Part shown: piece after piece, positions 31,351 through 34,698 of the stretch | Position numbering within the stretch: the stretch's first letter is position 1 | How the letters are laid out: the number at the start of each line of letters is the position of its first letter | DNA from: Alphaproteobacteria bacterium | GTDB lineage: Bacteria; Pseudomonadota; Alphaproteobacteria; Micavibrionales; UBA2020 | Direction: 5' to 3' | DNA: 34,817 nucleotides | Assembly: GCA_030682495.1 (NCBI GenBank) | Contig: JAUXOC010000015.1 | Coordinates: 1-34,817, forward strand | Position numbers and translations under genes: made by a program | The notes under the pieces: generated by a model | What the model saw: the letters and a program-made list of their open reading frames with translations, nothing else | What the model was told of the DNA's origin: nothing | Database searches by the model: none

Positions 31351-32790
31351 TTACTTCCCCATCGCCCTGCGTAGTGCGGGGGGGATGGCGGGTTTGTTTT
31401 GCGGTTTGGCCTGCGCCAGCATGTAATCCGATGCATCCTTGAGCGTACCGAATTTCTGCGAGAACAGCTTGGCATCGCAATCGCCTGTCAGCAGCACATT
31501 CACAAGACGGGAGACATCGGCGGCCAGCTCCGGCTGCGCTTCGTAGCGGGTCGCAACGATACCTGCCACATCCGCCGCGAAATCGCGCAAGCTGCGCACT
31601 GCGCCCGTCTGCGGGTCTTTGCCGAAAGCAACATCCATAAATTTCCCGCCGTGGCCGACCACTGCCGCGCGTGCGGATTTGAGCAGCGGCGCGTCATTGA
31701 CAGGATTTCCGGTGAAGCCGTAATCCGCGAGCAGCGCGTCGAAAGCCTTCGCCTGCGGCCCTGCCGGTACAATGGCGGCGGAGAGCAGCGCGGCCATAAC
31801 CGGCTGGTCGATGCCGCTGTCGGCGCCGCGCACTTCCATGCGCTTGCCGACCACAGTGCCCGCTTCATCACGCAGGTTGCAGATTTTGATGTCGTTATAC
31901 AGGAACGTCTCGGCCAGCTCAAAATTCGACTGGGTATTGAGCCCCTCTGCGATCAGCCCTGCGAAGGTGATCGGCTTTTCGCGGCTGGCCGGAAACAGGT
32001 TGCCGTCCTTGTCATAGGCAAAGTGCATGGGGGCGTCGAAAACCTCGCGGATGTGGCCGTCGATAAATTCTTTGCCGTTCGTCGCCTTGAGGAAAGCTTC
32101 GGAAAGCCCGCCCGCGCGGCCATAGCCCTGATAATACTGCGCGCGCGGCAGGATGCCGAGTTTTTCGTCTTCGTTCACCACATAGCCGCTGAGCGTATTG
32201 CAGGCTGCCATCAGAAGCGGCGTCAGCGCATAGGCGCGGCGCGCCATATCGAACATCTCGTTTTCGTCTTTGGGGCTGAAACTGACCTGTACGGCGGAGG
32301 TCAAAAGAGGCAGGCGCAGCGTATCGGGCGGAAAGATTTCCTTCATCGCGCCGATGCTGACCTGCAGGCGCGGGCGGGAGACGATTTTATCGAGCGCGTC
32401 CTGCTCGGTCGTCGTCGGGACGATAGAAAACGGCACACGGGTAAAACCGGCCTCTTCAGCAGCCTTTGTAAACGTCGCCAGCTCTTCGCGCAAAATGCTG
32501 ACAAGGCGCGAGACGGCAGGCGCATCGGGCGTCGTCGCGGGGCTGGCGTATTCCAGCACGCCGGCGGGCTCCAGCTGCGCATCGAAGCCTTTTTTGCGCA
32601 AGACGGCCTGCAATTTTTCCATCTCTAGGGCGGTAGGCACTTCGGGCTTGCCGCGGCGGGCGTCAATCAGCGGCATTTCGACTTCCACGCCCATCTTGCC
32701 GGTGAATTTTTCCGGCGGCGGCGCGTAAAGCGCGCGGGCATCGTCGATGCTGGCGATGAGGCGGGTGTTGTTTTTTTGTACGTCGGTCAT
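31351..32790 (-). CDS. Glutamate-cysteine ligase-like protein, copy 1
   Basis: A 479-residue protein of the glutamate-cysteine ligase (GCS2)/carboxylate-amine ligase fold, as I judge it. Glu36 and Glu38 in GKMGVEVEMPL are the first metal-ATP residues. QVSFSPKDENEMFDMARRAYAL and GKRMEVRGADSG provide the central strand/helix and the late acidic-basic active-site strand. It is the paralogue of the gene at 33082; both start MTDVxKN and share LNTQSNFELAETFLYNDI. The enzyme would join an amine to a carboxylate using ATP; the substrates are not certain, and gamma-glutamylcysteine synthesis is only one option. It has its own leader ORF and promoter upstream. Confidence 0.68.
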   Translation of the reverse strand: MTDVQKNNTRLIASIDDARALYAPPPEKFTGKMGVEVEMPLIDARRGKPEVPTALEMEKLQAVLRKKGFDAQLEPAGVLEYASPATTPDAPAVSRLVSILREELATFTKAAEEAGFTRVPFSIVPTTTEQDALDKIVSRPRLQVSIGAMKEIFPPDTLRLPLLTSAVQVSFSPKDENEMFDMARRAYALTPLLMAACNTLSGYVVNEDEKLGILPRAQYYQGYGRAGGLSEAFLKATNGKEFIDGHIREVFDAPMHFAYDKDGNLFPASREKPITFAGLIAEGLNTQSNFELAETFLYNDIKICNLRDEAGTVVGKRMEVRGADSGIDQPVMAALLSAAIVPAGPQAKAFDALLADYGFTGNPVNDAPLLKSARAAVVGHGGKFMDVAFGKDPQTGAVRSLRDFAADVAGIVATRYEAQPELAADVSRLVNVLLTGDCDAKLFSQKFGTLKDASDYMLAQAKPQNKPAIPPALRRAMGK

Positions 32791-32905
32791 GGTATTTGCG
32801 GCCCTTTATTTATTGTGCGCGCCCGCCCTGTTTTTGGCGGCGGCTGGAAGATCGGTAGCTGAAGGGGGAGGCAGGACGAAACCTGCCCATAAACGGTGAA
32901 CTGGC

Positions 32906-32968
32906 TTAATGCCAGTGATGGTGCGTATGGGCGCGACCGAAGCCGATGGATGCAAATACCGTTTTCAT
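32906..32968 (-). CDS. Short His-rich leader ORF of ligase copy 1
   Basis: A 20-codon ORF, MKTVFASIGFGRAHTHHHWH, starts 7 bases after a -10 box and ends 115 bases before the ligase start. Five of its last seven codons are His. Its end coincides with a hairpin ACTGGC-ATTAA-GCCAGT containing the stop codon. It resembles amino-acid leader peptides used in attenuation, but no U-run terminator is visible after it. Its sequence is similar to the leader before copy 2 at FG-x-A. Confidence 0.5.
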   Translation of the reverse strand: MKTVFASIGFGRAHTHHHWH

Positions 32969-32975
32969 GTCTTGG

Positions 32976-33005
32976 AATATGACTGATTCACACTGATTCT
33001 GTCAA
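32976..33005 (-). promoter_or_regulatory. Promoter of ligase copy 1 and its leader ORF
   Basis: On the minus strand a perfect TTGACA (33005-33000) is followed after 18 bp by CATATT (32981-32976), with the leader ATG 7 bases further on. The first 12 bases, TTGACAGAATCA, are identical to those of the copy 2 promoter. Confidence 0.65.
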
Positions 33006-33023
33006 TAAAATATTGTTGCGGCA

Positions 33024-33059
33024 CAAAAAAACCGCCCTTTTACGGAGAAAAGAGCGGTT
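33024..33059 (-). terminator. Rho-independent terminator of ligase copy 2
   Basis: On the minus strand AACCGC...GCGGTT with an inner CTTTT/AAAAG pairing forms a long stem, followed by a run of seven Ts. It lies 22 bp past the stop of copy 2 and separates that gene from the promoter of copy 1. Confidence 0.8.
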
Positions 33060-33081
33060 CTTTGCAGAAGCACGTTAAAGG

Positions 33082-34503
33082 TTAACGGCGCATCGACGGT
33101 TGCGCCTTCGCGGCGGGCTGCGGCATCGGCGTTTGCTGGAGCGCTTCGGTCACCTCGGCCAGACTGCGGTACTGCGCCGCGAAGATCTTCGCATCGCAAT
33201 TGCCGCTCAGCAGCAGATCGGCGAGTTTCGAGACATCGGCGGCCAGCGCCTTGTCTTTTTCGAAGTGATCGACCACAAGCCCCGCCACATCCGCCGCGAA
33301 GTCGCGCAAGCGACGCGCAGCACCGGTTTGCGGATCCTTGCCGAAAGGCACGTCCATAAATTTGCCGCCGTGGTGGACGGCTGCATCGCGTGCCGCCTGC
33401 AAAAGCGGCGCGTCCTGCACCGGCACGCCGGTGAAACCGTAATCCTTCAGCAGCGCATCGAACTTCTCCGCCGTTTTGCCGTCCGGCACCAGCGCGGCGG
33501 TCAGCAAAAGCGCGCTGACCGGCTGGTGCATGCCGCTGTCTGCCGCGCGGACTTCGAGACGTTTGCCGACAACATTGCCGGTTTCATCGCGCAGGTTGCA
33601 GATTTTGATGTCGTTATAGAGGAATGTTTCCGCCAGTTCGAAATTCGACTGGGTATTCAAACCGCGGTCAATCAGCTTGCGGAAGGTCAGCACATCGTCT
33701 TTGGTCGAACGGATCAGCGCGCCATCATGGCCGTAAGCAAAGAACATCGGCGCGTCGAAAACGGCCTCGATATGGCCGCGCACGAAGTCATCGGCATTCG
33801 TCGCTTTGAGAAAAGCCTGCGACAGCCCGCCGGATGTGCCGTACATTTCGTAGTATTTGCCGCGCGGATGATGGTCGAGGCGCGTATCGTCATTTTCGAC
33901 ATAGCCCGCCGTACTGTTCATGGCCGCAATCAAAAGCGGCGTCAGGGCATAGCCGCGCTGCGCCATACGGAACATTTCGCCGGTGTCTTTGGGGCTGAAG
34001 CTGGTCTGCACACCCGTCGTCAGCAGCGGAATGCGGCTGAGGCGCGGGTCGAGCGCATTTTCGATGACGTCCAGCGATGCTTCCAGCCGTTCGCGCGGCA
34101 CGCGGTTATCGAGCGCATCCTGCACCGTTGTGGTCGGCAGAATGCTGAAGGGCGCACGCGAAAACCCGCGCGCTGCCGCTTCGTCTTCAAAGGCCTCCAT
34201 ATCCGCCTTGACGCGTGCCACCAGCGGCGCGAGGTTTTCAAGCGCGGCGGGTGGGCTTGCGTATTCCAAAACGCCCGCGGCTTCCAGCTGCGCATCGTGG
34301 CCTTTGGCTTTCAGCGCGGCATGCATGGCCAGCATATCGGCGGCGGCGGGAATGTCAGGCTTGTCACTGCCTGCGCGGTACAGTGCCATTTCCACTTCCA
34401 GCCCCGTTTTTCCAGTGAAGCTTGTCGGCGGCGGCTGGAAGAACGCAAGCGCGTCTTCGGGTTTATTGATACGGGTATCCTTGTTCTTGACGACGTCGGT
34501 CAT
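33082..34503 (-). CDS. Glutamate-cysteine ligase-like protein, copy 2
   Basis: A 473-residue paralogue of the gene at 31351, alignable over its full length. Glu36 and Glu38 (GKTGLEVEMAL) match copy 1, as do QTSFSPKDTGEMFRMAQRGYALTPLL, the block LNTQSNFELAETFLYNDI and GKRLEVRAADSG. Differences concentrate in the N-terminal helices and the ~25 C-terminal residues (basic and Gln/Pro-rich, ending AKAQPSMRR). AAGGA lies 8 bases before the ATG. It is a separate transcription unit with its own promoter, leader ORF and terminator, so the duplicates can be expressed under different conditions. Confidence 0.68.
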   Translation of the reverse strand: MTDVVKNKDTRINKPEDALAFFQPPPTSFTGKTGLEVEMALYRAGSDKPDIPAAADMLAMHAALKAKGHDAQLEAAGVLEYASPPAALENLAPLVARVKADMEAFEDEAAARGFSRAPFSILPTTTVQDALDNRVPRERLEASLDVIENALDPRLSRIPLLTTGVQTSFSPKDTGEMFRMAQRGYALTPLLIAAMNSTAGYVENDDTRLDHHPRGKYYEMYGTSGGLSQAFLKATNADDFVRGHIEAVFDAPMFFAYGHDGALIRSTKDDVLTFRKLIDRGLNTQSNFELAETFLYNDIKICNLRDETGNVVGKRLEVRAADSGMHQPVSALLLTAALVPDGKTAEKFDALLKDYGFTGVPVQDAPLLQAARDAAVHHGGKFMDVPFGKDPQTGAARRLRDFAADVAGLVVDHFEKDKALAADVSKLADLLLSGNCDAKIFAAQYRSLAEVTEALQQTPMPQPAAKAQPSMRR

Positions 34504-34599
34504 GACTCTGTTCCTTGGCCCGGACTTTTAAGCGGGGCTGATATTTATGATGGGGGTACTGAGGGGGGCAGCGCGAGGCTGTAAAAATGACAATGGCGG

Positions 34600-34659
34600 C
34601 TAGGCGCCAAAATAAGCGTAGCCAAAAAAGAAAACAGCGATGTGTTTTGCGTTCGTCAT
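34600..34659 (-). CDS. Short aromatic-rich leader ORF of ligase copy 2
   Basis: A 19-codon ORF, MTNAKHIAVFFFGYAYFGA, starts 9 bases after a -10 box and ends 96 bases before ligase copy 2. It is rich in Phe and Tyr. The FGYAY segment lines up with FGRAH of the other leader. No ribosome-binding site is visible, as expected for a nearly leaderless message. Confidence 0.4.
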   Translation of the reverse strand: MTNAKHIAVFFFGYAYFGA

Positions 34660-34668
34660 GATGGAAAG

Positions 34669-34698
34669 ACAATAATCCGCGCGCGTTGATTCTGTCAA
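34669..34698 (-). promoter_or_regulatory. Promoter of ligase copy 2 and its leader ORF
   Basis: On the minus strand TTGACA (34698-34693) is followed after 18 bp by TATTGT (34674-34669). The -35 and the six bases after it (TTGACAGAATCA) are identical to the copy 1 promoter; the remaining spacer differs. Confidence 0.55.

What the first reader, a model, noticed from the sequence alone, without database searches (positions are those of the whole stretch)
32906..34698. Two paralogous ligase genes, each with a matched promoter and a short leader ORF
Both ligase genes are preceded by TTGACAGAATCA, an 18-bp spacer, a -10 box and, 7-9 bases later, a 19-20-codon ORF. They share MTNAKHI.../MKTVFAS... 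starts and an alignable FG-x-A core, yet one ends His-rich (HTHHHWH) and the other is Phe/Tyr-rich. The leader-to-ligase distances are 115 and 96 bases. Retention of the same layout after duplication argues for function. A translation-sensing control, where ribosome speed over the leader sets ligase expression, is the simplest idea. Small modified peptides acted on by the ligase are a more speculative alternative.
Basis: partly seen in the sequence, partly recalled or inferred. Interest (0 to 1): 0.75.

Follow-up and report, generated by a model that had tools for sequence, protein, structure and literature searches.

The report
Leader peptides controlling two paralogous ligases
In a Micavibrio-like bacterium, two sister genes for enzymes of the glutamate-cysteine-ligase fold are each preceded by a tiny conserved gene, one rich in histidine and one in phenylalanine/tyrosine, whose stop codon sits in the loop of an RNA hairpin; this looks like a switch in which ribosome movement on the tiny gene sets enzyme production, a new use of a known control principle.

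Summary
Each ligase (A 31351-32790, B 33082-34503, minus strand, 57% identical, glutamate-cysteine-ligase fold) has its own TTGACAGAATCA promoter, a 20- or 19-codon ORF, and a 115- or 96-base gap. Homologous leaders precede 22 ligase loci in 13 genomes of the order (Micavibrio relatives). A-type leaders end HHW-x-stop, B-type Y-x-Y-F-G; two distant ligases carry W..WA leaders. In all 22 the ATG lies 35-40 nt from the -35 box, so the leaders are probably leaderless. In 21 of 22 the stop codon lies in the loop of a GC-rich hairpin (2.8% of control stops). A second hairpin with a C-rich tail follows in A and B types. As a group, leaders are complementary to the ligase start region beyond shuffles and control segments. 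Best reading: ribosome-sensing leader peptides tuned to His(/Trp) in A and Phe/Tyr in B, acting by translational, possibly Rho-linked, attenuation. Transcription start, translation and signal are untested. The ligases are not the genome's main GshA, and hisD is missing from all 13 carriers, so this is not ordinary biosynthetic feedback.

The parts
33000..33005 (-). -35 box TTGACA of the ligase A leader
   Evidence: TTGACA/TTGACG at 35-40 nt before the leader ATG in all 22 loci
32976..32981 (-). -10 box CATATT of the ligase A leader; 7 nt from the leader ATG, so a leaderless or near-leaderless mRNA is predicted
   Evidence: transcription start itself not mapped
32906..32968 (-). Leader ORF A, MKTVFASIGFGRAHTHHHWH* (20 codons, five His, one Trp)
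   Evidence: A-type leaders end HHW[H/R/L]-stop in 10 of 10 genomes with an A-type ligase
32900..32916 (-). Hairpin H1 of leader A: ACTGGC[ATTAA]GCCAGT, stop codon in the loop
   Evidence: all A-type leaders have the same 6-bp stem with a 4-5 nt loop
32869..32888 (-). Hairpin H2 of leader A: GGGCAGG[TTTCGT]CCTGCCT, followed by C-rich CCCCCTTC
   Evidence: a stem is kept with different sequences in relatives
32952..32960 (-). Leader segment GGTATTTGC, perfectly complementary to the 9 bases before the ligase A ATG
   Evidence: own A: z -2.9 to -3.7
32791..32799 (-). GCAAATACC directly before the ligase A ATG; partner of 32952-32960
31351..32790 (-). Ligase A, 479 aa, glutamate-cysteine ligase fold, clade A
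34693..34698 (-). -35 box TTGACA of the ligase B leader
34669..34674 (-). -10 box TATTGT of the ligase B leader; 9 nt from the leader ATG
34600..34659 (-). Leader ORF B, MTNAKHIAVFFFGYAYFGA* (19 codons, six Phe/Tyr)
   Evidence: B-type leaders end Y-x-Y-F-G(-A/G/C)-stop in 9 of 9 genomes with a B-type ligase
34594..34609 (-). Hairpin H1 of leader B: TGGCG[CCTAGC]CGCCA, stop codon in the loop; T-rich tail TTGTCATTTTT
   Evidence: stem varies with compensation in relatives (CTTTGGCTG/CAGCCAAAG, TGGCGG/CCGCCA)
34569..34581 (-). Hairpin H2 of leader B: CAGC[CTCGC]GCTG, followed by CCCCCC
33082..34503 (-). Ligase B, 473 aa, paralogue of A

Best explanation
Each ligase gene is a separate transcription unit whose mRNA begins at, or within a few bases of, the ATG of a 16-21-codon leader ORF. 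Ribosomes that load on this ORF run into hairpin H1, which holds the stop codon in its loop, while they decode the His codons (A) or Phe/Tyr codons (B). Without a ribosome on the leader, its sequence pairs with the ligase start region and keeps ligase translation low. A ribosome slowed at those codons, or held at the stop, keeps the leader RNA open, so the ligase is made. This is translational attenuation by a leader peptide; the C-rich, G-poor stretch after H2 would fit an added Rho-dependent layer. SHOWN by computation: the conserved ORFs, biased residues, promoter-to-ATG spacing, stop-in-loop hairpin, second hairpin, leader/start-region complementarity as a group property, and the ligase fold. 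INFERRED: leaderless start, ribosome pausing, direction of control, the amino acids sensed, Rho. The ligase substrate is unknown; the fold suggests ATP-dependent amide formation, probably on glutamate.
For: 22 leaders from 13 genomes. -35 to ATG distance 35-40 nt in all. Stop codon in a hairpin loop at score >=14 in 21 of 22 against 2.8% of 246 control stop codons. H2 begins 15-25 nt after the stop in all A- and B-type leaders, with differing stem sequences. Close relatives keep the leader ORF better than the bases after it: 100% vs 78%, 98% vs 64%, 81% vs 54%. Residue enrichment. Leader x ligase-start complementarity: Stouffer z -4.6 to -5.0 over 17-18 leaders; two control segment pairs give -0.2 and +0.5. 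Leader type follows ligase clade. No intrinsic terminator in A.
Against: No expression data. Own B shows no significant leader/start pairing by itself, and the two distant leaders (G092, G071) show none. Relatives are not independent, so combined z-scores overstate. Synonymous excess is weak. The A stem of H1 never varies, so H1 in A has no covariation support. Hosts lack hisD, and those tested lack a clear trpE, but keep prephenate dehydratase, so a simple biosynthetic feedback logic is missing. Hairpin H1 of B has a T-rich tail that scored as terminator-like, so termination there is not excluded.
Confidence: 0.6

Rival explanations
1. Classical transcription attenuation of the trpL/hisL kind: H1 is the 1:2 pause hairpin, and alternative pairing decides on an intrinsic terminator before the ligase.
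For: Repeated regulatory codons and stop codon inside the first hairpin, as in trp leaders (own knowledge); H1 of leader B scores as terminator-like; a leaderless leader ORF with transcription attenuation is known for S. meliloti trpL (PMC7298713).
Against: No hairpin with a U-run in leader A; H2 is followed by C, not T, in the A and B leaders; no mutually exclusive antiterminator was recognised.
Confidence: 0.18
2. The leader is a structured RNA element (riboswitch-like or protein-bound); the ORF is incidental and its C-terminus only mirrors the hairpin.
For: H1 overlaps the last codons (CAC TGG C.. or TTT GGC) and H1/H2 recur.
Against: The ORF starts at a fixed promoter distance in all 22, its end is in frame with the hairpin at several different lengths, His and Tyr codons upstream of the hairpin use both synonyms, and residue bias differs by ligase clade. 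No Rfam family matched.
Confidence: 0.12
3. Plain translational coupling: leader translation opens the ligase start site without sensing any amino acid.
For: Leader/ligase-start complementarity is all that coupling needs; the leader of G010 (ending RFRNA) has no His or Phe/Tyr run at its end.
Against: Does not explain clade-specific His or Phe/Tyr enrichment kept through sequence change.
Confidence: 0.2
4. The short ORFs encode functional peptides, perhaps substrates of the ligase (a small modified-peptide system).
For: Conserved C-termini HHW-x and YFG-x next to an ATP-dependent ligase; distant fold similarity to the Pup ligase PafA.
Against: N-terminal and central residues vary freely; the C-terminal residues coincide with the hairpin; the PafA similarity is weak and expected within the superfamily; no modification or export gene is seen between or next to the pair.
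Confidence: 0.03

Closest known systems
toiL uORF of E. coli topAI-yjhQ (PMC12121999)
   Same: A uORF whose ribosome stalling alters RNA structure around the downstream ribosome-binding site; translational repression followed by Rho-dependent termination
   Different: toiL responds to several classes of ribosome-targeting antibiotics; here the leaders are His- or Phe/Tyr-rich, probably leaderless, end in a hairpin loop, and precede a ligase. No response was tested
Sinorhizobium meliloti trpL attenuator (PMC7298713)
   Same: Alphaproteobacterial leader ORF with regulatory codons, RNA 5' end at the ATG
   Different: trpL controls Trp biosynthesis through transcription attenuation; here no clear terminator, and the gene is not a biosynthetic gene of the encoded residues
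Enterobacterial hisL / pheL / pheST-type leader peptides (own knowledge)
   Same: His runs or Phe/Tyr runs in a leader ORF before the regulated gene
   Different: Those leaders precede His or Phe biosynthesis or tRNA-synthetase genes and intrinsic terminators; the present hosts lack hisD
ermC-type translational attenuators (own knowledge)
   Same: Start region of the main gene masked by leader RNA, opened by a ribosome on the leader
   Different: Macrolide-dependent nascent-chain stalling there; no drug link here
Plant-type glutamate-cysteine ligase (2gwc, TIGR01436, GCS2)
   Same: Fold (Foldseek E 1e-11, TM 0.69/0.75); many Glu/Arg residues invariant through distant paralogues
   Different: No TIGR01436 match for A or B; a separate, much closer GshA candidate is encoded elsewhere

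Membership tests
Ribosome-dependent transcription attenuator (trpL/hisL type) | Leader ORF with repeated regulatory codons | tested here: met
Ribosome-dependent transcription attenuator (trpL/hisL type) | Hairpin overlapping the end of the leader ORF | tested here: met
   21 of 22 leaders, 2.8% of controls
Ribosome-dependent transcription attenuator (trpL/hisL type) | Intrinsic terminator (hairpin plus U-run) before the structural gene | tested here: not met
   Leader A none; leader B only H1 with an interrupted T tail; H2 followed by C-rich sequence
Ribosome-dependent transcription attenuator (trpL/hisL type) | Regulated gene makes or charges the encoded amino acid | tested here: not met
   GCS-fold ligases; hisD absent from carrier genomes
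Translational attenuator (ermC/toiL type) | Leader RNA pairs with the main gene's start region | tested here: inconclusive
   Significant as a group, clear in own A (9 bp), not significant in own B
Translational attenuator (ermC/toiL type) | Ribosome stalling on the leader changes expression | not testable with these tools
   Needs reporters and ribosome profiling
Leaderless leader ORF (as S. meliloti trpL) | Transcript begins at the leader ATG | tested here: inconclusive
   -35 to ATG spacing 35-40 nt in 22 of 22 predicts a 0-5 nt 5' UTR; no RNA data
Plant-type glutamate-cysteine ligase TIGR01436 (GshA) | Curated equivalog score | tested here: not met
   No match listed for A or B at E up to 10; best GshA candidate is G000:C84
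GCS2 superfamily fold | Glutamate-cysteine ligase fold | tested here: met
   Pfam PF04107 reaches its cut-off for A only

The most novel reading that the evidence does not exclude
The codons of each leader name the amino acid that its ligase handles: a set of paralogous GCS-fold ligases in predatory alphaproteobacteria specialised for His, Phe/Tyr and Trp, each set by a leaderless uORF that measures that amino acid, so that the substrate could be read from the leader.
Probability: 0.12. Interest if true: 0.78.

Novelty: new variant of a known kind. Interest (0 to 1): 0.55.

Why it matters
Leader-peptide control is best known for amino-acid biosynthesis operons and drug-resistance genes. Here it appears before uncharacterised ligases in bacteria related to obligate predators that lack the His pathway, with different residue biases on two sister genes. 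If confirmed it would give a sensor of amino-acid supply in an auxotroph, a handle on the function of an unnamed ligase family, and a simple architecture (promoter, leaderless ORF, stop codon in a hairpin loop) that can be searched for elsewhere.

Tried and rejected
A SAM-II-like riboswitch before the third paralogue (C), suspected by eye, was rejected: Rfam names that stretch bacterial small SRP RNA. Pairing of the leader 5' end with the segment after H1, seen in several minimum-energy folds, was not above shuffles (Stouffer -0.6). A search of the order with a degenerate pattern for the A-type hairpin gave only one true leader besides scattered matches at other places; the pattern missed most known leaders and is no evidence of absence. 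Comparison with a trpE leader of the same genome was not possible: only a weak PabB-like match is there. MAFFT alignments of A and B leaders together misplace the B stems, so hairpins were scored per sequence and no covariance model was built. Absence of hisD in carriers is recorded as context, not as a correlation: about half the order lacks it and carriers cluster in one family. No match of the leader in plasmid records. A class-wide sample found no close A/B-type ligase outside the order.

Full report
WHAT IS THERE. The window is a contig (C40) of a 2.52-Mb genome whose close relatives in the public collection are named Micavibrio sp. and Rhodospirillaceae/Alphaproteobacteria MAGs. Two genes on the minus strand, B (33082-34503) and A (31351-32790), encode proteins 57% identical over their length. 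Pfam sees GCS2 only for A and at the cut-off. A predicted model of A (pLDDT 79, 8 sequences) matches plant glutamate-cysteine ligase 2gwc (E 1e-11, TM 0.69/0.75) and YbdK. Neither protein matches the GshA equivalog model, while another locus of the genome nearly reaches its cut-off. So these are extra GCS-fold ligases of unknown substrate, not the main GshA. B and A each have their own promoter; the sequence between them holds a G+C-rich hairpin followed by seven T, which reads as the terminator of B (by eye).

THE LEADERS. Leader A is MKTVFASIGFGRAHTHHHWH (32968..32906), leader B MTNAKHIAVFFFGYAYFGA (34659..34600).

CONSERVATION. Homologues were fetched from the genus, family and order. The tandem B-A pair is present in two genera (nine genomes); single copies occur in two further genera of the family. 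Leaders were found before every one of these A/B-type ligases. A-type: MKTAFISIAGFGRAHLHHHWH, MTNRVEKFSALHSRRHHWR, MTNRVNISALHHHHWH, MTNRVKNISALHHHHWH, MTNLMQQISALHSHRHHHWR, MTNLVAQVLAHAHHAVSHHWL, MTKAANIAVLPFHPRHHWR. B-type: MTNAKHIAVFFFSYAYFGA, MTNKWNIAFFSYSYFG, MKTVSQIAVTYFAYAYFGG, MTNVWNNNFFFYPYFGC, MANNKNIAAPYFSYAYFGG. G010 has a longer leader ending RFRNA. Two distant ligases of another family (G092, G071; 28-29% identical to A) carry MKNLTQTSFVVETCQSAVSVWRLWA and MINLKANVISISFAPVWRNWA. The ligase tree puts the A-type genes, including the single copy of G017, in one clade (95/94); B-type genes lie around it. Leader type therefore travels with ligase type, and the duplication is older than the split of the two genera.

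COMMON ARCHITECTURE. In all 22 loci the first base of the -35 box is 35-40 nt from the leader ATG, which predicts a transcript starting at or within about five bases of the ATG, as is known for trpL of Sinorhizobium meliloti (PMC7298713). In 21 of 22 the stop codon lies in the loop of a hairpin scoring 14 or more; 2.8% of 246 control stop codons do. The A stem is always ACTGGC/GCCAGT. B stems vary: TGGCG/CGCCA, TGGCGG/CCGCCA, CTTTGGCTG/CAGCCAAAG, ATTTTGGCT/AGCCAAAAT; G010 has AACGCC/GGCGTT, G092 TGGGC/GCCCA. The shared TGGC falls in different reading frames in A (TGG C) and B (TTT GGC), so the different last residues follow partly from the hairpin; the His and Tyr/Phe codons before it do not. 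A second hairpin starts 15-25 nt after the stop in all A- and B-type leaders, with many different stem sequences, and is followed by C-rich sequence. The stretch from stop to ligase ATG has more C than G (median ratio 1.48; other upstream regions of the window 0.7-1.5, mostly near 1).

LEADER AND LIGASE START. The leader is complementary to the ligase start region more than to shuffled versions of it (mean z -1.2, Stouffer -5.0; 5' part -4.6); two control pairs of segments are at zero. In own A it is a perfect 9-bp match, GGTATTTGC with GCAAATACC. In own B it is not significant. Relatives share ancestry, so the combined values overstate the certainty.

CODING TEST. Leader ORFs are better kept than the bases after them in most close pairs. 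The hairpin and the promoter spacing fix both ends, and at least five distinct leader lengths in A and three in B all keep the stop in frame inside the loop. Synonymous codon differences are 14 of 41 (34%) against about 21% expected for random changes; pairs are not independent and the test is weak.

MECHANISM. The anatomy fits a ribosome sensor. The hairpin meets the ribosome while it decodes the His (A) or Phe/Tyr (B) codons. Leader RNA free of ribosomes can mask the ligase start. No U-tract terminator follows in A, and in B only the stop-codon hairpin has a T-rich tail. I therefore prefer translational attenuation, perhaps with Rho as in toiL of E. coli (PMC12121999). Direction of control and the signal are inferred.

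CONTEXT. hisD is absent in all 13 carrier genomes and present in 68 of 142 genomes of the order. Of seven carriers tested, only two have a trpE-like match, weak and inside 700-800-codon frames that look like PabB. Prephenate dehydratase is present. Micavibrio aeruginosavorus is reported to lack the pathways for Ala, Arg, His, Ile, Met, Trp and Val (PMC3189940). So a His- or Trp-sensing leader cannot be feedback on its own biosynthesis here; it might report supply from prey. This is conjecture.

JUDGEMENT. Real, conserved and in all likelihood regulatory; the closest kind is known. What is new is the gene family controlled, the paired His and Phe/Tyr versions, and the stop-in-loop, probably leaderless layout.

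Noticed in passing
G000:C49 (L009), L011, L033-L037, L025: A third, distant ligase paralogue (C, about 34% identical) lies downstream of the SRP RNA gene; a short ORF ending ..RM* precedes it, its stop overlaps a possible hairpin (CGAATGTGA...), and in several genomes TTCTGCC after the stop is complementary to the ligase Shine-Dalgarno region GGCAGA.
   Followed up: partly
G000 contigs C25, C84, C96, C49, C40: The genome encodes about six GCS2-superfamily proteins, including a near-cut-off GshA (C84) whose match is in two pieces.
   Followed up: partly
L040 and L044 (G092, G071): Ligases of another family carry Trp-containing leaders (..VWRLWA*, ..VWRNWA*) with a stop-in-loop hairpin and, in G092, TTCCTTT after the hairpin complementary to the ligase AAAGGAA.
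   Followed up: partly
32791-32869 and 34504-34568 (leaders A and B, between H2 and the ligase start) and relatives: A recurring motif close to CCAGATAACCGA between the second hairpin and the ligase start in both A and B leaders of several genomes; meaning unknown.
   Followed up: no
order-wide, hisD search: Histidinol dehydrogenase is missing from about half of the genomes of this order, including 17 of 18 of the window's family.
   Followed up: partly
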